Below are positions 37,906 to 60,063 of a stretch of 64,000 nucleotides of DNA, piece by piece. How positions within the stretch are numbered: the stretch's first letter is position 1; every line of letters begins with the position of its first letter. The notes beneath the pieces were generated by a model. The model saw nothing but the letters and a program-made list of their open reading frames with translations. It had not been told where the DNA came from and searched no databases. A program made the translations under genes and the position numbers. This stretch comes from a virus. The stretch lies in the IMG/VR virus record IMGVR_UViG_3300038456_000361, positions 1-64,000 of that record; one strand, given 5' to 3'.

Positions 37906-38748
37906 TTACAGCGACTTCACGACCGCGGCGACCATCTCCGGCCCCACGATTCGTTCCCACTGTTGGGCCGCCCAGATGGCGCCCTCCTCGAGCATGTGCT
38001 TGGGCTCGAGCCCCGGGTGTTTCCACATCCCCTTGCCCGCCTGTTTGCTGCTGGCCACGCGGAACGTGGTGATGGAGCGCTTCACGCTCTCCTTGCCCGT
38101 CTTGGGGTCCTTGACGTTCTTCTGGGAGATGCGGATACCCTGCAGGAACGGGATTCCCGTCGGGCCCTGGCGGACGTCACCGACGGCACCCCAGCCCTGG
38201 CCGGGGCCCTCGGCGGTCTTCACGGGCGCCTTGGTGATGTCGATGTTGTGGAGGTTTCCGAGCAGGGGTTTCCCGTCGGGGCCCTTCTCGATTTTGCCGA
38301 AGGGGATGCCACGCGTCTTCAGCTCGCCGCGGATGGTGTCGATGAGGGTCTTGCCGGCGGGCGTGGTGCCCGTCTTGCCCTTGCCCGGGCTGTGGTCGAA
38401 GGGGATGGTGATGTAGCGGCTGCCGTCCTTGCTCGTCTTCGCCTTGGGGCTCTTCAGGAGGTCCTCGAGCATCTCATGCTCGTCCATGCCGTCGTCAATC
38501 CAGCGGTACTTCTTGTCAAGGTTGACAATCCACACGCCCTGACCGCTCTGTTCCAGGGGGAAGACAGTGAGGTGCTCGATGAACATCTGGCGTCGCGTGT
38601 GCAACTTCGCCTGCGCCTGCTCGATGATGTGCGAGTGCGTGGCCTGGGCCAGTTTGGCGCCGGCCTTGTTCAGGCTGTCCCGGATGGCGGGCTCGAGCCC
38701 CTTCTGGATGGAGAGCAACGCGGAGATGTCGAGGTTGAGGCGAATCAC
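37906..38748 (-). CDS. Putative tail completion / neck protein
   Basis: The gene encodes 280 residues from a GTG one base after the previous stop. The N-terminus (LEPAIRDSLNKAGAKLAQAT) followed by a basic, polar middle resembles minor tail or tail-completion proteins of the HK97 gp10 type in outline. No diagnostic motif was seen. The context of small neck-like genes supports a junction role. Confidence 0.5.
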   Translation of the reverse strand: MIRLNLDISALLSIQKGLEPAIRDSLNKAGAKLAQATHSHIIEQAQAKLHTRRQMFIEHLTVFPLEQSGQGVWIVNLDKKYRWIDDGMDEHEMLEDLLKSPKAKTSKDGSRYITIPFDHSPGKGKTGTTPAGKTLIDTIRGELKTRGIPFGKIEKGPDGKPLLGNLHNIDITKAPVKTAEGPGQGWGAVGDVRQGPTGIPFLQGIRISQKNVKDPKTGKESVKRSITTFRVASSKQAGKGMWKHPGLEPKHMLEEGAIWAAQQWERIVGPEMVAAVVKSL

Positions 38749-38982: not shown

Positions 38983-40578
38983 TTACCTGCCCCCGGGGTT
39001 CCTGGCACTGATGGCGTGCCCGTCCTGGCTCATGACCACGCCCGAGCGAACTTCCACCCAGCCCACGGCGCCGTCGGCGTGCCGGACCTTGACCTTGCCA
39101 TCCTTGGCGCTGCCCACCGGGAGATTCAGGTGATGCGTGGCTGGCCCCGGGTCGGGCATGGGCAGCTCGGCCTTGTTGTGGGGGGCGTTGAAGGGCTCGA
39201 AGACGACCTGCTTGCCGGTCATGGAGCGGTGGACCATCTTGGCTTGTACTGGCTGCACCTCGTAGCCGAGCATCCTCAGTTTGCGCATGCCCTCACGACC
39301 AAACCACTCCTCGGCGTGCTCGGGGCGCTCGAAGGCGTACAGGCCTTGTTTGCGCTCGACCATCTTCGAGGCGCTGTAGTCATCGCTGAAGTCACGACGC
39401 GGCAGCGGCTGATTGTCTGCTGGCACCTTCAAGTCCGTAAGGGCGTCCATGTGCTGAGCATCCATCTTGGCCCCACCGAGGCCTCTGGAGGCGCGGCTCT
39501 CGTATGGTCCCTCGCCGTTGCTGTTCTGCACCCTGTAGACCGTCATGGGCTTGGTGGTGCTGTCGTGGATGAGCGCCATCTTCTCGAGGGGCTCGGACTT
39601 GCCCATCTCCCCATCGGGAGACCCTGCACCGCTTTCAGCCGCAGCCTCGTCGGCAGACCCACCCGCGATGGAGCCCCCCTTCTCCCCATCGGGAGAACCA
39701 TCCGGAGATTCCGGAGAGTTGCCCCCGGTGAGCTGCTTGGCCATGGCGACCATGGCCTGGACCGCGCCCAGGACGGCCTTGTAGACCTCCGGGGACTGGG
39801 CCTTGGCCTCCTCGAGGAGGGGTGCGGCCGCCTTGACCTGCTTGAGGACCTTGACGACCTGCTGGCGCATGGCCTCGCGGCCGCTCTGCTGCTGTTGCAC
39901 CGCGAGGGTGGCCCCGTCCTGGCTTTTCTGCTTTTGCGCGTGCGCGTGCAGGCGCTGCTCCGCGGGGCTCTCCCCGGGCAACGGGGGCGCCTGGGGGGCG
40001 TCCAGGCGCTGCGCCGCGGCGGCACCGAGCTGCTGGCGCGCCTGCATGCCCTGGCTGCCGGACGCGCTCTGGGTCTCGTGCTGGGGCTGGGCCGGGCCCG
40101 GCGCCTCGGCCTTGGTCAGGTACTCGTCGGCGATTCTGCCGATGGGGTCCTGTCGGCCCTTCGCCCGCTCCTCGGCCGCCTCCTCGAGTTCCTCGCCGAC
40201 GTCCGGGGTGTAGAAGCACACGCGGTTGCCCCCGTGCATCTTCGCGTAGGCCAAGGCCTTGACGCTCTCCGAGAGTTCGAGGCCCACGCCGACGCTGCAG
40301 CTGCAGCCCGTCGCGCCCCGGTACTGGGCCTGCATGCCGGGCAGCTCCCCGAGCTTCGCCGCGGGCACCTCCAGCGTTCCCTCGTCCCCGCCGAGGCTGA
40401 TGATGGTGCCCCCGCTGTTCACGGCCCACGCGCCCCAGAGTTCGTTCCCCTGCTCGATGCCCTGGCTGAGCTTCCGCAGGCCATCTGCGTCGTTGTTGAG
40501 GCTCGCACGCTCGATTTCCTTGCCGATTTTGTCCCCGTTGAAGGAGACGTAGACTGAAGTGCCCAGATAGTCTGACAT
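38983..40578 (-). CDS. Virion-associated protein with GGDEF/mCpol-like palm domain
   Basis: The gene encodes 531 residues from the ATG 7 nt after CAATCT; an upstream in-frame extension is not used. Residues 7-125 follow the nucleotidyl-cyclase palm: VYVSFNGDKIG, GGTIISLGGDEG, CSCSVGVGL and ALAYAKMHGGNRVCFY, matching the DxDxxG, GGDE, SxGxG and AKxxGKN motifs of GGDEF, Cas10 and mCpol enzymes. The first acidic residue of motif 1 is Asn. A Gln/Ala-rich coiled coil (residues 170-300) and a C-terminal domain (MTVYRVQNSNGEGPY to VVFEPF) follow. LTKAE and MGKSE separate the parts and may be cleavage sites. Catalytic competence and partner are unknown. Confidence 0.65.
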   Translation of the reverse strand: MSDYLGTSVYVSFNGDKIGKEIERASLNNDADGLRKLSQGIEQGNELWGAWAVNSGGTIISLGGDEGTLEVPAAKLGELPGMQAQYRGATGCSCSVGVGLELSESVKALAYAKMHGGNRVCFYTPDVGEELEEAAEERAKGRQDPIGRIADEYLTKAEAPGPAQPQHETQSASGSQGMQARQQLGAAAAQRLDAPQAPPLPGESPAEQRLHAHAQKQKSQDGATLAVQQQQSGREAMRQQVVKVLKQVKAAAPLLEEAKAQSPEVYKAVLGAVQAMVAMAKQLTGGNSPESPDGSPDGEKGGSIAGGSADEAAAESGAGSPDGEMGKSEPLEKMALIHDSTTKPMTVYRVQNSNGEGPYESRASRGLGGAKMDAQHMDALTDLKVPADNQPLPRRDFSDDYSASKMVERKQGLYAFERPEHAEEWFGREGMRKLRMLGYEVQPVQAKMVHRSMTGKQVVFEPFNAPHNKAELPMPDPGPATHHLNLPVGSAKDGKVKVRHADGAVGWVEVRSGVVMSQDGHAISARNPGGR

Positions 40579-41324: not shown

Positions 41325-41552
41325 ATGCATGAATCCACGATGAAGTACCTGAAGCCCAGCGAGGAACAACTGGCGACCATGGACACGGTCCGCGCGGTTT
41401 TCGCGGATACCCTGACCCTCGTCGACAACCTCCTGCCCCCGGGCCGGTACAAGAGCCTCGCCATCACCGCCATCGAGGAGGCCGCCATGTGGGCGAACAA
41501 GGCCATCACGCGCGAGAGCGACGGCACCCCGCGGGAAGGGGCGACGACGTGA
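41325..41552 (+). CDS. Acb2/Tad1-hairpin-like cyclic nucleotide sponge
   Basis: The gene encodes 75 residues with GAGGAG ahead of the ATG. The sequence forms a helical hairpin: helix 1 around EEQLATMDTVRAVFADTL, then LPPGRYKSLA, then IEEAAMWANKAI. The last segment closely follows the EEAxMWANxxI signature of the Acb2/Tad1 hairpin family. Known members bind cyclic oligonucleotides and block CBASS and Thoeris immune signalling. Ligand choice cannot be predicted. It overlaps the kinase gene by GTGA. The family call rests on motif recognition only. Confidence 0.65.
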   Translation: MHESTMKYLKPSEEQLATMDTVRAVFADTLTLVDNLLPPGRYKSLAITAIEEAAMWANKAITRESDGTPREGATT

Positions 41553-42958
41553 GCGTTGGGCCACAAGTATTTGCGTTCTCCGGACGCAAGGGGTCGGGCA
41601 AGGGGGTTATGTCGAGCCTACTTGAGCGCCGAGGGGCCGTTAAAGTGTCCATGGCCGGTTGGCTGAAGAACACCACCTCCTATCTTTGTGGCGTCAGTGC
41701 GGCTCAACTAGATGCTCTGAAGCTGGCTGGGGCACCACTCCCCCAAATAGACCCATCCCGACTGTCCATACTCGCCAGCAATTATCCCATCCTAGCCCCT
41801 TATCTGGATGGACTTCCGGCCCAGACGCACAACACTAGGACATTCCTTCAGTACCTGGGCACAGAGGTCTGCAGGTCCGCGGACCCAGAGTTCCACGTCA
41901 AGGTCGCTCTCAAGACCATCCAAGACCTTCAAGGACAGGGCAAGACGGTTGTTTGCGATGACGTTCGATTTCCCAACGAACTCGCACTCAGGGGCATCGG
42001 AGCCCACTGTTTCTTCGTGGTCTCCCCCTGGAATTGGAGCCTCTCCAATCACCCCAGCGAAAACTCTGTCCTTTGGACCGACTTCGACCCCGAGCATATC
42101 ATCTTCAATGATATACCCCTACACAAACTCGAGAAGAGGTATGGGGCGTTCTTCGATAGATTCTTGAAACAGGGAGCCCCCACCGATGAACAGCCAGCAT
42201 CGGTCGTCGCCATGGCAAAAGAGGGTCTGTCGTCGACGGACATCGCTACTAAACTGGAGCTGTCGAGGGACGCCATGGTCTGGTGGGCTGTACGCGCCAA
42301 CGTTAGATTTCGGCGTACGGAGTACACTTCTGACGACCGAGCTTTCCTTGAGGGAACACCAGAAGCCGCCTATTGGGTCGGGTTCCTGACGGCCGACGGC
42401 TGCATCAAAAGGTCGGGAAACTCTCACAGCCGGTATGTGGTCGAGTTTGGTTCTGTGGACAAAAAGGCCGTTGATGGATTCCAGGCCTTCGTGGGGAGTA
42501 GGAAGCCCCTCTATGTAAAGAAGGAGCGAATGCAGGAGTTTAACGGAAAGAACTACGCGTGCCAGGAATACTTCTACACTGTCATTGAAAACCCTCTCAT
42601 CCTGGAAAATCTCAAGTTATGGGATGTAGTCCCCCTAAAAACAGCTCGAACGACACCCCCCTATATGGTCACAAAGAACTCCGAGTTGTTCTACCCGTGG
42701 CTCAGGGGCCTCATCGATGGAGACGGCTCTGTGTTTAAGACATACCAGTACGGAAAACCCCTCCCTCATGTCAGCGTTCTGGCTTTCTCCCCATTGGCAG
42801 ACTGGGTGCAGAAGACGGTTGAGTTGCCGTGCAGTCGACAAGACAATCACAAGGACGTTCCCGGCCTCAGTGTGCTATCGTATACCGGTCAGTACGCAAA
42901 TGAACTAACGGCAAGAACAAAGGGAGCGCCGTGTCTCTCCAGAAAGTGGACCCCATGA
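41549..42958 (+). CDS. dNMP kinase fused to HTH-LAGLIDADG endonuclease
   Basis: The gene encodes 469 residues from GTG. Residues 1-205 match phage deoxynucleoside monophosphate kinases (T4 gp1 type): P-loop SGRKGSGKG, YLGTEVCRSADPEFHVKVAL and VCDDVRFPNE. Residues from about 212 contain an HTH (EGLSSTDIATKLELSRDAMV) and two LAGLIDADG-like helices, YWVGFLTADGCI and WLRGLIDGDGSV. There is no stop between the parts. Near-identical AGGGAGC(C/G)CC sequences flank the inserted part (about 42171 and 42920). The kinase would supply dNTP precursors. Intein end residues are absent. The region is lower in GC than its neighbours. Confidence 0.8.
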   Translation: MSVGPQVFAFSGRKGSGKGVMSSLLERRGAVKVSMAGWLKNTTSYLCGVSAAQLDALKLAGAPLPQIDPSRLSILASNYPILAPYLDGLPAQTHNTRTFLQYLGTEVCRSADPEFHVKVALKTIQDLQGQGKTVVCDDVRFPNELALRGIGAHCFFVVSPWNWSLSNHPSENSVLWTDFDPEHIIFNDIPLHKLEKRYGAFFDRFLKQGAPTDEQPASVVAMAKEGLSSTDIATKLELSRDAMVWWAVRANVRFRRTEYTSDDRAFLEGTPEAAYWVGFLTADGCIKRSGNSHSRYVVEFGSVDKKAVDGFQAFVGSRKPLYVKKERMQEFNGKNYACQEYFYTVIENPLILENLKLWDVVPLKTARTTPPYMVTKNSELFYPWLRGLIDGDGSVFKTYQYGKPLPHVSVLAFSPLADWVQKTVELPCSRQDNHKDVPGLSVLSYTGQYANELTARTKGAPCLSRKWTP

Positions 42959-43290
42959 CCCAGGAACAGCAGCTCCTCGAGCACCACATCAAGCACGCCG
43001 GGGACGCGCTTGTCGCAGTCCGGACCCAGTACGAGGCGCTTCGGGCCGAGCTTGCGCATGAGCGGCGGCGCGCCGAGGACGCGGAGGCGAGCCGGGACAC
43101 CATCCGCGCCCACGCCCAGGCCGCTCTGGAGAAGTACCGGGACGACAAGGCGCGCACGGGCGAGCTTGAGACCCTTCTCGAGGCCGCTATCCACTCCTGG
43201 GACAGCGACGACGAGAACCTCACGCCCATCCTCGAGACAGCGCGAGACCTCCTGAGCGGCGGGGACCCGGTGGAGAAGAAACCCGCATGA
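42931..43290 (+). CDS. Hypothetical coiled-coil protein
   Basis: The gene encodes 119 residues from GTG at 42931, preceded by AGGGAGC. An ATG eight codons later is an alternative. The sequence is mostly a charged coiled coil (LRAELAHERRRAEDAEASRD). Its first 28 nt overlap the end of the kinase-endonuclease gene. Function unknown. Confidence 0.6.
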   Translation: MSLQKVDPMTQEQQLLEHHIKHAGDALVAVRTQYEALRAELAHERRRAEDAEASRDTIRAHAQAALEKYRDDKARTGELETLLEAAIHSWDSDDENLTPILETARDLLSGGDPVEKKPA

Positions 43291-44516
43291 AGAGACAGTT
43301 CCTGGTCCTCGGCATCGCCGCCGTGCTCACGTGCTGCGCCCCCGACAACGTACTCGTGGGGGTCCCCCAGGGGGACGCTGGCTTCGACGCAGGACCTGAT
43401 GCCGGCCCGGACGGGGGGCTCGACAGTGGCGTGGATGCGGGGCCCGATGGCGGTCCTGACGCGGGGCCGACCATCCCCGACGGGGGCTGCGTGCCGGGCA
43501 CCACCCAGGTCTGCTACACGGGCCCGGCAGGCACGGTCGGGGTGGGCATCTGCCACGCGGGCACACAGGCCTGCGCCTCGAGCTACGCCTACGGCCCCTG
43601 CGAGGATGAGCAGGTCCCCACCGCGGAGACCTGCGACTGCCAGGATGATGACTGCAACGGCACCATCAACGACATCTACCCGGGCGCGTGCTACAGCGGC
43701 CCGACGGACACAATCGGGGTGGGCGCGTGCGACTACGGCGTGACCGAGTGCACGCCCGAGTGCACCCAGGTTTGCGCCAACGAGGTCACCCCGGAGCCGG
43801 ACCAGTGCGCGGGCGTCGACCTCGAGTGCAATGGCGACCCCCCGTCGGTGAGCGCACCCGTGGACCTCGTGTTCATGGTCGACGACACCAACACGGGCTG
43901 CGAGTACCCCATGGGGCAGGCCGAGTTCAACCAGGTCCAGGACACGCTCACCACGTACGGGAGTTTCCCAACGACCCTGCCGGCCTTTATCCGGTGGACC
44001 CTCATCGCCATGCCGGGATGCAACGGGCAGGGCTGGCCCGCGGTCGATGACGGTGGCTACTCCGTCTTCCAGGAGCTGACGGACCAGGAGGGGTTCCTCG
44101 TCGGCTCGGACTTCGACGGGGGCATCCCCGGATACGCCCCAAACTTCGGCATCGAAATCCAGTGCTACGACACCACCCCGCAGTGCATGAGCGGGTACGC
44201 GTACTACCCCTACGACCTCCTGTACGAACAGGTCCAGGGCCAGCTCACGCCCTGGAGCGATGGCGGCATCCAGAGGTACATCGTCATGATGACGGCCCAG
44301 CCCGGTGCGGGGCTCACCTACGACGTCGCGGACATCAACGCCGCGCTCGCCGCGTCCCCGGTCCCCACCACGGTGCTCATCTTCGCCGAGCCCCGGTACG
44401 AGCCCGACTACGAGGGCATAGACGCGGATGCCGACGACCGGGTCTTCGCGCTCAGCGACTACCAGAGCATGGACTTCGAGCTGCAAGAGAACATCGCCTT
44501 CATGTGCAAACAGTAG
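43287..44516 (+). CDS. Secreted Cys-rich lipoprotein of myxobacterial type
   Basis: The protein has 409 residues. A signal peptide (MKRQFLVLGIAAVLTCCA) with a lipidation Cys is followed by a linker of DAGPDAGPDGG-type repeats (residues 30-62). A Cys-rich part follows (CVPGTTQVCYTGPAGTVGVG, then CDCQDDDCNG) as in MopE-like and Myxococcota surface proteins. From residue 190 a vWA-like domain begins, VDLVFMVDDTNTG, with a partial MIDAS. This looks like a host gene captured by the phage. It may alter the cell surface or bind metal. It overlaps its upstream neighbour by 4 nt. Confidence 0.7.
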   Translation: MKRQFLVLGIAAVLTCCAPDNVLVGVPQGDAGFDAGPDAGPDGGLDSGVDAGPDGGPDAGPTIPDGGCVPGTTQVCYTGPAGTVGVGICHAGTQACASSYAYGPCEDEQVPTAETCDCQDDDCNGTINDIYPGACYSGPTDTIGVGACDYGVTECTPECTQVCANEVTPEPDQCAGVDLECNGDPPSVSAPVDLVFMVDDTNTGCEYPMGQAEFNQVQDTLTTYGSFPTTLPAFIRWTLIAMPGCNGQGWPAVDDGGYSVFQELTDQEGFLVGSDFDGGIPGYAPNFGIEIQCYDTTPQCMSGYAYYPYDLLYEQVQGQLTPWSDGGIQRYIVMMTAQPGAGLTYDVADINAALAASPVPTTVLIFAEPRYEPDYEGIDADADDRVFALSDYQSMDFELQENIAFMCKQ

Positions 44517-50586: not shown

Positions 50587-51468
50587 CTAGCTGTTCTGCA
50601 CCTTGCGGAACGTGCGCCAAGAATTGCAGAGCACCACCGAGGCGACGTGGTCGAAGCTCATGTAGAAGCAGCCCTGGAGGCTCGGGTCCGACCCGGGGGC
50701 GTTGCCGAGGCCCCAGCTGGCGCCCCAGCTGTTCTGGACGAGGAAGAGGCGCTTGGCGAGGTCGTACCCGCGGATGACCAAGAAATGGCCCCCGAGGATG
50801 TCGTCCGTGTCCGTCGGCAGCGGGCACACCCAGCCGGTGGCGTCGCTCATCGTCGAGAAGCTCGAGAAGAGCACCGTCCCGAAGGCGATGGGGTAGCCCT
50901 GGTTGAGGCTGTGGAGGATGTGCTCCAGCGAGAGCGTGTAGAAGCTGTCCGTGAGCTTGCGCTTCGCGGCGTCGACGTACGCGGGCTGTGGGGGCTTGAC
51001 CGCGAACTGGGTGATGTCGTAGGGCCACACGCTCTCCACGGGCACGCCGAGCAGGCGCGCGACCCAGGAGGCCCCGCCGCCGGTGCTGCCCGTGTCCTTG
51101 CTCTTGTCGATGCGCGCGTTCCAGTAGAGGAACAACCGCGAGAGCTGCAGGAGCTGGCCCGTCTCCTTGGCCTCGACGTCCGCCAGGCACGTCCCGATGG
51201 CGTTCTCGACGCAGGAGCCGAGCGTGAGCTGGTCCTGCACGGGCGGCCACAGGGGGTTGCCCGCCTTGAGGTCCAGGGAAGCGGGGAACTTCAGGGACAG
51301 GGGAATCAGCTCGAGCAGGGGCAGGAACCTGAGCTTCGCGAGGCCCTTGAACAGGTCCGTGTAGACCTTGCTCTCGAGCGTCTCCAGCTCGGTGTCAATC
51401 TTGGCCGAGAGCTGAACTCCGGCGGGGATGCAACCAAAGGGCTTCGACGCGTCTCTGAACACTGACAT
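50587..51468 (-). CDS. Papain-like cysteine protease (C1A)
   Basis: The gene encodes 293 residues from the ATG at 51468, 8 nt after GGAGGT. An in-frame ATG 15 nt upstream is less likely. After about 75 residues the mature-enzyme motifs follow: QLTLGSCVENAIG (Cys near residue 85), GGHFLVIRGYD (His near 229) and LVQNSWGASWG (Asn near 245), the C-H-N order of C1A peptidases. There is no signal peptide, so it should act in the cytoplasm or virion. Host targets or capsid maturation are possible roles. It heads a cluster with its own promoter. Confidence 0.9.
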   Translation of the reverse strand: MSVFRDASKPFGCIPAGVQLSAKIDTELETLESKVYTDLFKGLAKLRFLPLLELIPLSLKFPASLDLKAGNPLWPPVQDQLTLGSCVENAIGTCLADVEAKETGQLLQLSRLFLYWNARIDKSKDTGSTGGGASWVARLLGVPVESVWPYDITQFAVKPPQPAYVDAAKRKLTDSFYTLSLEHILHSLNQGYPIAFGTVLFSSFSTMSDATGWVCPLPTDTDDILGGHFLVIRGYDLAKRLFLVQNSWGASWGLGNAPGSDPSLQGCFYMSFDHVASVVLCNSWRTFRKVQNS

Positions 51469-51511
51469 GGGTGCTACCTCCAAAAAGGAGCCAGCTGAGG
51501 GGGCTTCACCC

Positions 51512-54112: not shown

Positions 54113-55030
54113 TTATCTTGGCCCGAACCCGCCGCCACGTGGCGCGAGTATCTGCCGGAGGTTCGACTGCCCCAGGCTGGCGGGCAACCCGGTCACGGGT
54201 TTCCCCGGGGACTGGTCCTCGCCCTTGTTGTCCTGGTTCTCGAACACGTACTCGCGCTGGAGGAGCGCCTGCTGGGGCATGCGCACCGTGTGCCGGATGC
54301 CCGTCGCGGGGTCCTCGAGCTGGGTGACCCGGATTTCGTGCGGGAGGTCCTTCACGTACCAATATGGCCGGTAGCAGTAACGGATGCTGCAGATGCCCCC
54401 CGTGCCCGCCTCGGGGTTTGACACGGGCTGGCGGCCGCCCTCGAGCCACCTGAGGAGGCCATTGTCGATGGTGAAGTCCTGGCCCTGTACGAGGTCCCGA
54501 CCCTGGCTGTCCACGAGCTGCTCCACGCGCACAAGCGGGTAGTCGAGCTTGTCCGTGGGTCCCCCGCAGGCCTCGAAGAGCTGCCAGTTGCCGACGATGA
54601 TGGTCTCCTCGGCGAGGTACATGCGGTCATAGGGCAGGAGCAGACACTCGAAGGGCTCCCCGCCGGCCGAGAGCACGTCGTAGGTCCGCGGGGGCGTGAC
54701 CATGATGTTCGCCTGGTTCACGATGCCGATGTCCAGGACCTGGGGGTTGTCGCTGTTGTTGCTGACGGCGCAGGTGATGGGTGCCACGAGTTTGTACAGG
54801 AAGCCGTTACTGCACTCGCCGTGCTCGCCATGCGGGTGGCGCTCGTCGTCGGCGTCGACCATGCCAATGGGGCACTTCATCGCTCGCCAGTGGACCAAGG
54901 TTAGCCCGTGAGACCTGAGCATGTTATCGAACGCATCTGCGTCGAAATTTACAGCCTCGGTGGGGAGCTGCGTATCCTGGACTTGGGAGAATTGTTGCTT
55001 GGGAAATGGCTTGAAGGGCGGGCGTGGCAT
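54113..55030 (-). CDS. Virion structural protein (His/Cys-rich N-terminal segment)
   Basis: The protein has 305 residues. HWRAMKCPIGMVDADDERHP and HGECSNGFLY contain clustered His and Cys. The rest is beta-rich, with YDRMYLAEETIIVGNWQLFE and RYCYRPYWYVKDLPHEIRV. I associate this pattern with uncharacterised structural proteins of large phages. GGAGGG precedes the ATG. A connector or portal-proximal role is possible. Confidence 0.6.
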   Translation of the reverse strand: MPRPPFKPFPKQQFSQVQDTQLPTEAVNFDADAFDNMLRSHGLTLVHWRAMKCPIGMVDADDERHPHGEHGECSNGFLYKLVAPITCAVSNNSDNPQVLDIGIVNQANIMVTPPRTYDVLSAGGEPFECLLLPYDRMYLAEETIIVGNWQLFEACGGPTDKLDYPLVRVEQLVDSQGRDLVQGQDFTIDNGLLRWLEGGRQPVSNPEAGTGGICSIRYCYRPYWYVKDLPHEIRVTQLEDPATGIRHTVRMPQQALLQREYVFENQDNKGEDQSPGKPVTGLPASLGQSNLRQILAPRGGGFGPR

Positions 55031-55596: not shown

Positions 55597-58500
55597 TTAG
55601 ATTACTGGCGCGAGGGCGTTACTGGTCTCCCAGCTGTCCAGGCCCACCCACATGCGGTTGATGGTCAGGTCCACGGGCGTACCCTCACGGATGGTGGTCT
55701 TGAGTTTGGCGAGGCGCCGTAGGCACGGCCCAGGGTCGAGGCCGAAACGCGCCATGATGGTCTCGAGAGCGTCGGCGTGCAGGCCGTTCACCCAATCCCG
55801 GAGCAGGGCCTCCACGTGCGCATCCGCACGGGGGAGACGCCGGAGCTTCTCCTCAGGGTCGAGGGTGTTGAATTTTCGGGGGGACCACGCGCGCAGGTAG
55901 TAGGCGACAAAGGACGAGCGGTCGTGCCCGGGGTTGAAGCCGTTGCCCGCGAACGCGCTCCCGTGGTCGATGAGGTACATCCTCTCGGGCTGGCCGTTGT
56001 CCGCGAGGATGTTCTGCCCGTGCCTGTCCACGTTCCCGAGGATGCCGTCGAGCACGGCCCACTTGTGCAGGGTGCCCGTCTTCAGGTACGAGTGCAGGCT
56101 CCAGAGCACGTGCATGCTGTCCTCCTTGGCGCGCTTCTCCAGGGACCGGAACTCAGGTGGCAGGAACTGCATGGCCGCGACGGGCTTGCCGTCGATGAGG
56201 AGCAACTCGCACTTGGGGACGCTGTCCCCGAGCCCGAAGACGGTCTTCGCGCACGCGTAAAAGCAGGCCTCGCGGGCGCTCTGACTGCCCTGGGTCTCGC
56301 GGATGCCCGCCGCGGGGCTCGGAGAGCCCGAGCCGGGCTTGAGCAGCCACACGTCATCGCTGTCGGGGTCGTGCGCGACGAGCGTGCCCTTGCTGTGCTT
56401 GCCCTTGAGCTGGATGGCCTCGACGCGCTTGTGCCGGAAGGCGGCGCGCACGGCCTCGGCTACGCCGTCGGCGCTCGCCGTGCCTGCGACGATGCTCCCG
56501 GGCGTGCGCGGGCGGTCCTGGGGCTCGAAGTTCTGCTCCCCCTTGCCGAGACGCTCCTCCTCGTTGTGGACGGCGAAGTGGGAGGGGCGTGCGAGTTTGC
56601 GCTCCTGCTGCTGGGTCGCCACCACGGAGAGGATGCCCTGCAGGGACAGGCGGTGCTCCTCGTCGGGCTCCATGCCGTAGGCGCGCAACGCGGCCGCGTC
56701 GCGGTCTCCGTCCTCCTCCCAGACGAAGCGGCGCATGTCCTCGGGCGCGAGCCGGGCCTTGCCCCCGGAGAGGAAGCGTGCCGCCTCGAAGACCTGGTCC
56801 TCATCGAGGTGGTGTCCCTCGAAGTCGGCCACGAAGTCGGGGTCCGCGAGGGGCAGGAGGTCATGGCTGCCCCCGTCCTGGCCGCGGATGGCGTTGCCCG
56901 GCTGGTGCGCGCCCTCGGCGCTCACGCTCTCGTAGCTCTGGTCGGGGTTGTGCTGGTCCGGGGTGTCGATGGCGCCCGGCATGCCGTTCACGTGCCCGTA
57001 CTCGGCCTTGGCGAGGTTGCGTCCACGGGCCCAGGGCTGGATGCTGCGCGCCCAGTCCGCGGGGGCGACCGCGGCGGCCGTCAGCAGGGAGTTGTGGGCG
57101 CGCTTCATCTGCGTCCCGAACTCCTGGACGGCCTCGGGGGTGTGACCCTTGCACGTGTGGTACGCGGCGCGCTCCCCGGGGTTGTTCAGGTAGTTCAGCA
57201 TCAACGCCATGCGCTCCTCAAAGGGGTAGGGGTGCTCGTGCTCGAGCTGGCCATTGGAGGCGTGCGTGACGCGCGTAGTGGGGGCGCGGTCCCGCATGAA
57301 CGTGTCCACGTACTCACGCTGGTGCTTGGGGATGGAGTGGTAGAGGTTGTGCGCGAACGTGAGGCGCCCCACGGGCCCGTACTTCGCGTTCACGCGGTTG
57401 AGCATCTGGTGCAGGTCCTCGTGGGGCTTGGTCGACTGACCGGACCTGGGGTTCGAACTCGCCCAGGTGTTGATGTTCTTGGGGTCATGTTTGACGCCCC
57501 GGAGGGCGGCGTCCTTGCTGTAGGCGATGTTCGTCCTGCCCGTGCCAGCCCCGGGACCCGTGTACGTGGCCCCGAGGTCCGATGCGTTCTCGCTCGCGAT
57601 TTGCTCCGCCTGGTCCGCGCGGCCGTTCGTGCGCACCGCGTTGACCACGGCCCGGTTCTTGATGTTGAACTCCCGCGGCGTGTGTATGACGGGCGTCTCC
57701 CGGGGGTTGTCCCCGAGGCCCATCTTCGGGAAGGTGGGCGTGGTGCGGTCCTTCTGGAGGAGCCACTCCTGGGCCTCTCGGGCGAAGCCCGCGTCCAGCT
57801 GGGTGCCGACCGCCTTCCGGAGGCCCGCGGGCAGGTGCGGGTGCTCGGCCACGAGCGCCTTCGTGGCGGCGCTGACGCCCGGGTTCACGAGGATGGCCAC
57901 GGCCTGGTCCTGGGTCAACGCGGGGTTCGTGGCCACGCCCTCGAGGACCTCGGGGTCACCTCCGTCGAGGAGCTGCTGCAGCTGGTCCGGCTCGAGGTTC
58001 GGGCTCGTCGCGAGCGCGCGCCTGACCAGGGGGTTCGTGTCCGCGAGGGCCTGCTCGATGTGCGTGGCGTCCGCCAGGGGGTGCCTGGCCGCCTCTATGC
58101 GCACGTTCGGGGCCGAGTGCGCCAACGCCTGGGTGAGGACCTCGGGGTCCACCAGGGCGTGTTTCAGCGCAGCCAGGGCCACCTGCGCGTCGGGGTCCTC
58201 GACGCCCCGGCGCACGTCCGCCTGGGTCACGCCCGGGAGCTTGAGGGCCATCATGCGCTCGGCGCGCGCGGGATGCTGCATGAGGGTCTCGACATCAGTC
58301 TTTTCAAGGACTTCCCCGGCTGATGGGTAATTACGGGCACTCTTGGCCAGGGGCTTCACGTCCAGGGGGTAGAAGACCGCGACGGCGTTGGGGACCGTGG
58401 GGTGGTAGTTCTTGTACCCGTGGTATTTCTTACGGATTTTCCGCTCCACCTCATCGAGGTCCGCGGGCTCGTAGATGCGGCCCTCGTCGGTCTGGCGCCA

Positions 58501-60063
58501 CTTGGGGCGCATGTACCCCTCGGGGTCCTTGCCGATGTCGTAGAGTTTCCACCCCTTGGGGAGCTTGGCGCGGTACTTCTGGTACTGGCCGGCCTTGAAC
58601 GTGCTCTCGGGCTCGGTGCCGGCGTGGTAGAGGTAGGTGCGGGGGATGCGGTTCTGGCGCTGGGCCTCGCCCCCGTGCAGGCCGAACGCGCCAGTACCCT
58701 GCATGCTGGGGTCGAGGCGCTTGAGGCCGCGCATGGGGCTGTAGTGGTCGAACTCCTCCTGGGGGGCCTCGGGCTCGGCCTTACCGAAGACAGGCTTGTT
58801 GCGGTATGAGAGGACGTGCTTGACCTCTTGCTGGTGCTGTGCCTGGGTGTCGGTGATGCTCGCGGGCGCGTTCTGACGTGCCAGGTCTCGACGCTGGATA
58901 TTGTCTCCCAGGGCGTTGACGCGGGCATCCACGTTCCCCGGCAGGGTGCGGTCGTAGTGGCTCGTGGGCCCGATGACCTTCCGAGGATAGTGCTGGTGCA
59001 CCTCGAACTCGGCCATGTTGGGGACGATGACCTCTTCCTCGGGGGAGTGGCTATCATGCCCGGCCTGCGTGGGAGAGAAGCGGATGTGATGTTCCGGCAC
59101 CCAGGCGCTGACGACCCCTCCGGGGCGGTTGAAACCCTGGGCGATGCCGAGGTTTGGTGTCCAGCTACTGGCAGAGGTCGTGGCAAAGCGCTTTCCGTCG
59201 GGGCTCATACCGCGGTTGCGCTCGACGTCGCCCATGCCCCTGTGGAGCAGGAACTCACGTTTCTGGGTCTTGGGGTCGATACGGACCTGGGTACTACCGT
59301 GCAGGCCATGTAGGAGCCTCTGGGTGTCCTCGTGGGGCATTCCCTCGACAGCCAGCCCTTCTCGAGCGTCTTTGTCCTGGAGGCCTACCCAGTCTGCGGC
59401 GTGCCCATAGGTCTCGTCGCTGATATTACCCTTGCCCTCACGGTTACCCTCGGAGGGCCAGCGCTTGGTGGCGACGCCCTTCTGCAGCTCGGACTTGAAG
59501 GTGGTGGCGGGGTGAGCCACGGGCTCGACCTGCATCTGCAGGTGCGGTGCCTGGAAAGGCGCCAGGACCTCGCCCAGGGGCTGCTCAGGTCCTTCCTCGA
59601 CCTCGTTCCAGTCCTGGAGGCCGAGCATGCGCAGGACCACGTTCTTGGGCGAGTGGAGGTTCTCGAGGATGTACGAGGGAATGAACTCCGGGTCCACCCA
59701 CTCATGGTCGTGGAACTCTCCATCGGGGTCGTTGTCGAACTTGACGTCCTGGCCCGGGGGGATGTTACAGCGGAAGGCGTGCACGCGGATGGTGTCTCCC
59801 CGCCAGCCCGTGACGACGTCATTGCCGAGCGCCTTCAGGGTCTCGCTCTCGGGGATGAGGCCCACCTCCTCGAGAAGCTCCCTGGCTGCGCAGCGCTCGG
59901 GGCGCTCGTCGGGTTCCAGGTGCCCACCTGGTAAAGACCATTTCCCGTCATCCCTCCTTAGGCCGAAAAGAAGTTTGCCGTCCGGATTAAAGACTGCTAC
60001 CGAGGCCACTTCCCTCTCGGGGTAGTCCTTTTGTTCCGGGGCAATATCGCCTTTACGAAGCAT
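55597..60063 (-). CDS. Polyenzymatic virion-type protein: Nudix, ART-like, helical repeats, zincin, PI3/4-kinase-like
   Basis: The protein has 1488 residues. Nudix box GHLEPDERPERCAARELLEE lies near residues 47-66. At 260-350, FLLHRGMG, TTSASSWTP and EEEVIV fit the R-S-E pattern of ADP-ribosyltransferases. Residues 590-750 are HEAT/LRV-like repeats (DPEVLTQALAHSAPNVRIEA). KPHEDLHQML near 882 is an HExxH signature. At 1190-1450 a kinase-like domain has VWLLKPGS, DGILGNVDRHGQNIL and LIDHGSAF, as in PI3/4-kinase and HipA-like proteins. LEKTD, LAKAE, FGKAE and LGKGE may be cleavage sites. This resembles a packaged, injected multi-effector. The start overlaps the GIY-YIG gene by 11 nt. Confidence 0.8.
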   Translation of the reverse strand: MLRKGDIAPEQKDYPEREVASVAVFNPDGKLLFGLRRDDGKWSLPGGHLEPDERPERCAARELLEEVGLIPESETLKALGNDVVTGWRGDTIRVHAFRCNIPPGQDVKFDNDPDGEFHDHEWVDPEFIPSYILENLHSPKNVVLRMLGLQDWNEVEEGPEQPLGEVLAPFQAPHLQMQVEPVAHPATTFKSELQKGVATKRWPSEGNREGKGNISDETYGHAADWVGLQDKDAREGLAVEGMPHEDTQRLLHGLHGSTQVRIDPKTQKREFLLHRGMGDVERNRGMSPDGKRFATTSASSWTPNLGIAQGFNRPGGVVSAWVPEHHIRFSPTQAGHDSHSPEEEVIVPNMAEFEVHQHYPRKVIGPTSHYDRTLPGNVDARVNALGDNIQRRDLARQNAPASITDTQAQHQQEVKHVLSYRNKPVFGKAEPEAPQEEFDHYSPMRGLKRLDPSMQGTGAFGLHGGEAQRQNRIPRTYLYHAGTEPESTFKAGQYQKYRAKLPKGWKLYDIGKDPEGYMRPKWRQTDEGRIYEPADLDEVERKIRKKYHGYKNYHPTVPNAVAVFYPLDVKPLAKSARNYPSAGEVLEKTDVETLMQHPARAERMMALKLPGVTQADVRRGVEDPDAQVALAALKHALVDPEVLTQALAHSAPNVRIEAARHPLADATHIEQALADTNPLVRRALATSPNLEPDQLQQLLDGGDPEVLEGVATNPALTQDQAVAILVNPGVSAATKALVAEHPHLPAGLRKAVGTQLDAGFAREAQEWLLQKDRTTPTFPKMGLGDNPRETPVIHTPREFNIKNRAVVNAVRTNGRADQAEQIASENASDLGATYTGPGAGTGRTNIAYSKDAALRGVKHDPKNINTWASSNPRSGQSTKPHEDLHQMLNRVNAKYGPVGRLTFAHNLYHSIPKHQREYVDTFMRDRAPTTRVTHASNGQLEHEHPYPFEERMALMLNYLNNPGERAAYHTCKGHTPEAVQEFGTQMKRAHNSLLTAAAVAPADWARSIQPWARGRNLAKAEYGHVNGMPGAIDTPDQHNPDQSYESVSAEGAHQPGNAIRGQDGGSHDLLPLADPDFVADFEGHHLDEDQVFEAARFLSGGKARLAPEDMRRFVWEEDGDRDAAALRAYGMEPDEEHRLSLQGILSVVATQQQERKLARPSHFAVHNEEERLGKGEQNFEPQDRPRTPGSIVAGTASADGVAEAVRAAFRHKRVEAIQLKGKHSKGTLVAHDPDSDDVWLLKPGSGSPSPAAGIRETQGSQSAREACFYACAKTVFGLGDSVPKCELLLIDGKPVAAMQFLPPEFRSLEKRAKEDSMHVLWSLHSYLKTGTLHKWAVLDGILGNVDRHGQNILADNGQPERMYLIDHGSAFAGNGFNPGHDRSSFVAYYLRAWSPRKFNTLDPEEKLRRLPRADAHVEALLRDWVNGLHADALETIMARFGLDPGPCLRRLAKLKTTIREGTPVDLTINRMWVGLDSWETSNALAPVI
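55598..55606 (-). promoter_or_regulatory. Late promoter-like motif, 7 nt from ATG
   Basis: CAGTAATCTA. TAATCT is 7 nt before the ATG at 55591. The motif also forms the last codons and stop of the 1488-residue gene. Confidence 0.65.

What the first reader, a model, noticed from the sequence alone, without database searches (positions are those of the whole stretch)
38983..40578. Late phage protein with a GGDEF/Cas10/mCpol-like palm domain
Residues 7-125 keep the order and spacing of nucleotidyl-cyclase palm motifs (NGDKIG, GGDEG, SVGVG, AKMHGGN). The first metal-binding position reads Asn. mCpol-type enzymes make cyclic nucleotides in bacterial defence. A phage copy made with virion proteins could produce, mimic or titrate such signals in the host. 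It lies divergent to, and about 750 bp from, a likely cyclic-nucleotide sponge gene.
Basis: partly seen in the sequence, partly recalled or inferred. Interest (0 to 1): 0.85.

Follow-up and report, generated by a model that had tools for sequence, protein, structure and literature searches.

The report
Phage protein with disabled signal-making domain
A large phage makes, from the genes that build its particle, a protein whose front end is folded like the bacterial immune enzyme mCpol that makes cyclic nucleotide signals; here one metal-binding residue is changed to the same letter that kills the bacterial enzyme in the laboratory, while most related phages keep the residues intact.

Summary
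Window 38983-40578 (minus strand) encodes a 531-aa protein whose residues 8-123 form an mCpol palm: Pfam mCpol E=3e-14, above cut-off; AlphaFold model pLDDT 94.5; best PDB matches are OptS/mCpol (TM up to 0.90), ahead of GGDEF domains. A real Acb2-type sponge gene (Pfam E=5e-19) lies 747 bp away, divergent. The gene heads a minus-strand run of virion genes. Twelve further records (11 in IMG/VR plus Myxococcus phage Mx1) have the gene in the same place. Nine keep both catalytic aspartates, two (window, L069) carry Asn for the first, two (Mx1, L004) lost both. Published work shows that Asp-to-Asn at exactly this position abolishes cyclic-dinucleotide synthesis in Klebsiella OptS. So this copy is most likely a naturally inactive pseudo-cyclase, whereas most relatives look like intact phage-borne mCpols, a placement I found no report of. 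It is not a Panoptes system, and linkage to Acb2 is not conserved (2 of 13 records). C-terminal parts vary (GNAT, ParB-like and others), as in 'polyvalent' proteins thought to be packaged and injected. Packaging, nucleotide binding and effects on host signalling are untested.

The parts
38983..40578 (-). 531-aa late phage protein (P0001): N-terminal mCpol palm, low-complexity linker, conserved helical segment, variable domain, conserved C-terminal tail
40210..40557 (-). mCpol-type palm domain, residues 8-123
   Evidence: Pfam PF18182 E=3.2e-14; AlphaFold pLDDT 94.5; Foldseek to OptS
40537..40539 (-). codon AAC of Asn14, at the place of catalytic metal-binding Asp6 of KpOptS
   Evidence: alignments; sequence
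40381..40392 (-). GGDE hairpin, residues 63-66; Asp65 = catalytic Asp57 of KpOptS, retained
39721..39867 (-). predicted helical segment, residues 238-286, conserved in the orthologues (VVKVLKQVKAAAPLLEEAK...AVQAMVAMAK)
   Evidence: alignment; used as search motif
39184..39555 (-). variable C-terminal domain, residues 342-465, matching phrog_1106 (unknown function); not seen in the orthologues scanned
   Evidence: (E=3.3e-12)
38986..39123 (-). conserved C-terminal tail, residues 486-531 (LPVGSAKDGKVKV...VRSGVVMSQDGHAISARNPGG)
37906..38748 (-). neighbouring late gene (phrog_16819), found downstream of the palm gene in every relative examined
41325..41552 (+). Acb2-type cyclic-nucleotide sponge gene, divergent, 747 bp away
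   Evidence: Pfam PF24729 E=5.3e-19

Best explanation
The gene belongs to a family of late, probably virion-associated multidomain phage proteins that carry an N-terminal mCpol palm. In most members the palm keeps both metal-binding aspartates and probably makes a cyclic dinucleotide from NTPs, delivered with or made alongside the particle so as to act on nucleotide signalling in the infected cell (inferred). This window's copy carries the natural equivalent of KpOptS D6N and so most likely cannot make the product. It persists as a folded pseudo-cyclase, serving as a nucleotide-binding or dimerising module of the same late protein. Shown here: family, predicted fold, residue states, synteny. 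From the literature: the effect of Asp-to-Asn in OptS. Inferred: virion location, activity of relatives, the role left to the inactive copy.
For: mCpol family and fold. Asn14 = Asp6 and Asp65 = Asp57; Asp6 and Asp57 bind the metal, and either one changed to Asn abolishes KpOptS product (PMC12657218). Family in the same late-gene setting. Nine of 13 records intact (L019, L020, L021, L022, L064, L065, L066, L084, L085), two N (window, L069), two with both aspartates lost (Mx1, L004). Phage palms form one group apart from Panoptes-type mCpols (85/79 support). The palm is still recognisable where the site is lost: Mx1 (below cut-off) and L004 (just above) match mCpol. The L065 member is fused to GNAT and ParB-like domains, an architecture like polyvalent proteins, for which packaging and injection are proposed (PMC5512222).
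Against: No expression, proteomic or biochemical data. Asp-to-Asn was tested in one enzyme only about 24% identical; here a second acidic residue (E66, absent in KpOptS) could partly compensate. The adenine-selecting Ser30 position varies among intact phage members (S, A, G, D), which may mean different substrates or relaxed constraint. The window is a single metagenomic contig, and Asn versus Asp is one base (AAC/GAC), so the state could vary within the population.
Confidence: 0.6

Rival explanations
1. The palm is now purely a structural or assembly module of a head-tail protein in this lineage; catalysis is irrelevant and is being lost.
For: Metal site lost on at least two or three branches while palm, helical segment, tail and gene order persist; the gene sits between virion genes.
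Against: Nine of 13 records keep the whole catalytic set; 22 of 127 columns are invariant among five distinct intact palms, and the metal-site residues are among them. The window keeps 19 of those 22.
Confidence: 0.35
2. The inactive palm binds NTPs or cyclic dinucleotides, or pairs with a host palm enzyme, and so titrates or poisons host signalling, working beside the Acb2 sponge.
For: Most pocket residues are retained except Asn14, Ser38 (adenine-selecting Ser30) included; mCpol sites form at a dimer (PMC12657230); Acb2 lies 747 bp away.
Against: Acb2 is in only 2 of 13 records. Poisoning a host OptS would trigger, not prevent, Panoptes killing.
Confidence: 0.2
3. The window palm is still an active or partly active cyclase despite Asn14, using D16 or E66.
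For: D16 is invariant in all members and E66 in all but Mx1 and L004; the Asn state occurs twice, in window and L069, with the second metal ligand intact.
Against: A single Asp-to-Asn at either position gave complete loss in KpOptS. D16 is invariant also in Mx1 and L004, so it is not a mark of activity.
Confidence: 0.12
4. A phage-borne Panoptes-like module acting against competing phages.
For: mCpol is the Panoptes synthase.
Against: No Cap15-type effector found in nine records (though no control genome rang); the gene lies among virion genes and is fused to unrelated domains.
Confidence: 0.03

Closest known systems
OptS / mCpol of Panoptes (KpOptS, PDB 9mnr, 9pd0, 9nwn)
   Same: palm fold, about 24% identity, DGD-type first motif and acidic hairpin, adenine-selecting Ser
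   Different: phage late gene, large multidomain protein, no OptE partner, GGDE where KpOptS has AADG, and Asn at the first metal ligand in this copy
Polyvalent proteins of phages (Iyer et al. 2017, PMC5512222), which include GGDEF-bearing examples
   Same: late phage multidomain proteins; the L065 member has GNAT and ParB-like domains with the palm
   Different: the palm is mCpol rather than GGDEF; the window copy has one further recognised domain only, of unknown function; I saw no mCpol case in the passages read
GGDEF diguanylate cyclases
   Same: same palm superfamily; next-best Foldseek group
   Different: no Pfam GGDEF match for the window protein
Cas10 palm (type III CRISPR)
   Same: same superfamily; weak match for L021 and L069
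   Different: single palm, no CRISPR context; separate group in the tree
Myxococcus phage Mx1 WNM70340 (hypothetical protein)
   Same: positional orthologue, same N- and C-terminal parts
   Different: both catalytic aspartates lost; lacks the phrog_1106 domain

Membership tests
mCpol domain (PF18182) | sequence profile match above curated cut-off | tested here: met
   53.7 bits against 26.4; below the NCBIfam cut-off, 37.6 against 40. In about 800 genomes long Cas10-like frames mostly reached at most 38.6 bits, one reached 64.1
mCpol domain (PF18182) | palm fold as in OptS | tested here: met
mCpol domain (PF18182) | first metal-binding aspartate (KpOptS Asp6) | tested here: not met
   Asn14
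mCpol domain (PF18182) | second metal-binding aspartate (KpOptS Asp57) | tested here: met
   Asp65
mCpol domain (PF18182) | synthesis of a cyclic dinucleotide | not testable with these tools
   needs biochemistry
Panoptes (OptS-OptE) | adjacent effector with S-2TMbeta, CARF or SAVED domain | tested here: not met
   neighbours are virion genes; no Cap15-type match in nine records (no positive control)
Polyvalent proteins | several domains of unrelated activity in one polypeptide | tested here: inconclusive
   met in L065; the window copy has the palm plus one unknown domain
Polyvalent proteins | encoded with virion genes | tested here: met
Polyvalent proteins | packaged and injected | not testable with these tools
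   needs virion proteomics
GGDEF diguanylate cyclase | GGDEF profile match | tested here: not met
   no match listed at E up to 10
Acb2 sponge (neighbour gene) | Acb2_Tad1_hairpin profile | tested here: met
   68.6 bits, cut-off 27

The most novel reading that the evidence does not exclude
A lineage of large contractile-tailed phages carries its own mCpol (and in most a second, GGDEF-type, palm protein) in the late genes, makes or injects cyclic dinucleotides to keep host second-messenger immunity such as Panoptes silent or to confuse it, and has repeatedly switched the enzyme off, as in this window, when it became costly.
Probability: 0.2. Interest if true: 0.88.

Novelty: new variant of a known kind. 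Interest (0 to 1): 0.62.

Why it matters
mCpol is known as a host defence enzyme whose product is a decoy guarded against phage sponges. A phage family with its own, mostly intact, mCpol turns that logic round and can be tested with purified palms. The natural D6N-type change gives a ready-made inactive control within the family.

Tried and rejected
A single-sequence scan of viral contigs, a first alignment scan of viral contigs and one genome-contig scan found no relative; the neighbouring gene and the helical segment were what reached the family. No plasmid match. AlphaFold of the C-terminal part gave pLDDT 40 and was not searched further. Rejected: direct functional coupling to Acb2 (2 of 13 records); Panoptes membership; a GGDEF identity; a chance motif match. 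The tree does not fully resolve how often the site was lost: two changes at least for intact/broken, three for the residue itself.

Full report
What is there. The frame at 38983-40578 is open on the minus strand and encodes 531 residues. The gene lies in a minus-strand run with tiny gaps to the next genes (38980, 38748), and the run continues to proteins orthologous to Mx1 genes annotated as, or lying next to, the tail sheath. A protein further upstream on the same strand, 54113-55030, matches a virion structural family. G000 is a 70,959-base IMG/VR record, linear, probably a fragment.

The N-terminal domain. Pfam mCpol covers residues 10-123 at 53.7 bits. As a yardstick, the same profile run over about 800 genomes gave 63-114 bits for small stand-alone mCpols and mostly 21-39 bits for long frames that include Cas10-like palms, with one long frame at 64; the window gave 57.6 bits in that kind of search. 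phmmer against the PDB returned OptS first (E 8e-4 and 2e-3). An AlphaFold model from 11 aligned sequences has pLDDT 94.5, and Foldseek ranks OptS chains first (TM up to 0.90 on the target, rmsd 1.4-2.1), then GGDEF domains. The alignment included bacterial mCpols, so the model is not blind to that family; the sequence profile is independent of it.

The active site. On KpOptS numbering the window has N at 6, D at 8, S at 30, E at 34, D at 57 and E at 58. In KpOptS, Asp6 and Asp57 hold the metal with the nucleotide, and Asn at either alone gave complete loss of cyclic dinucleotide (PMC12657218). The window copy is thus the natural counterpart of a laboratory-dead enzyme, one base (AAC/GAC) from Asp.

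Relatives. Whole-protein searches of annotated phages found only Mx1 over the palm. Through the neighbouring gene and the helical segment I reached L004, L019, L020, L021, L022, then L064, L065, L066, L069, then L084 and L085. With Mx1 and the window that is 13 records; L021 and L022 are near-copies, so about 12 distinct. All have the neighbour gene w37906 downstream, and most share further genes of the run. Site states: both aspartates in nine records; Asn plus Asp in window and L069; neither in Mx1 and L004. L064's reading frame is split after the palm, reason not determined. Among five distinct intact palms 22 of 127 columns are invariant; the window keeps 19 of these, L069 14, Mx1 and L004 11 each.

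Tree. Phage palms form one group (85/79), apart from bacterial mCpols (94/91) and Cas10-like palms. Window and L069 fall in different parts (a fork of 88/98 holds the window and not L069), so Asn probably arose twice; the residue needs at least three changes on the tree, the intact/broken state at least two. Inner forks are weak.

The rest of the protein. The helical segment and the last 46 residues are shared by window, Mx1 and L004. Between them the members differ: phrog_1106 here, DUF5661 matches in L019 and L020 (weak in L019), three GNAT matches and a weak ParB-like match in L065, and a long C-terminal extension without a Pfam match in L021 and L022. This mix resembles the polyvalent proteins that Iyer and colleagues propose are injected with phage DNA, some with GGDEF domains (PMC5512222). 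Packaging has not been shown for this family.

Second palm. Seven of nine records searched also hold a GGDEF-domain protein; the exceptions are the fragment G000 and L069. The GGDEF signature is present in the six copies where a text match was found, Mx1 and L004 included. Phages whose mCpol has decayed thus retain a GGDEF protein.

Sponge. Acb2 is real and lies 747 bp away, but the Acb2 hairpin occurs in only one other record, L065, about 41 kb from the palm gene. No Cap15-type effector matched in nine records, though no control genome rang for that family either.

Judgement. mCpol palm: very likely. Late protein: likely by position. This copy inactive: likely, by analogy to a direct mutant test in a distant homologue. 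Relatives active: plausible. Role in infection: open. I found no paper describing a phage-encoded mCpol, but the library holds only open-licence papers and supplements could not be read.

Noticed in passing
L071-L077 (Mx1 WNM70324 and relatives): Most relatives carry a second palm protein with a GGDEF domain, motif intact where a text match was found (six copies).
   Followed up: partly
L065 phage, G805:43403-43567 (L070): Acb2/Tad1 hairpin at the end of a longer open frame (277 codons), unlike the 75-aa window gene.
   Followed up: no
window 55597-60063 (-): 1488-aa protein with an N-terminal NUDIX domain and a weak C-terminal kinase-like match; its NUDIX part also matches a portal-protein family.
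   Followed up: no
window 41489-42958 (+): Deoxynucleotide monophosphate kinase match followed by a LAGLIDADG homing-endonuclease match in one frame, next to the Acb2 gene.
   Followed up: no
window 50587-51483 (-): Papain-family cysteine protease match (PF00112 above cut-off) among late genes.
   Followed up: no
window 43287-44516 (+): 409-aa predicted lipoprotein with Cys/Asp-rich repeats; a similar-looking fragment lies at the far end of the record (L003 10391-10960).
   Followed up: no
L064 1265-2624: Palm gene split between two reading frames after an intact palm; cause not determined.
   Followed up: no
window 40534-40539: The Asn14-Gly15 pair is a sequence type prone to spontaneous deamidation (own knowledge); L069 has the same Asn-Gly.
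   Followed up: no
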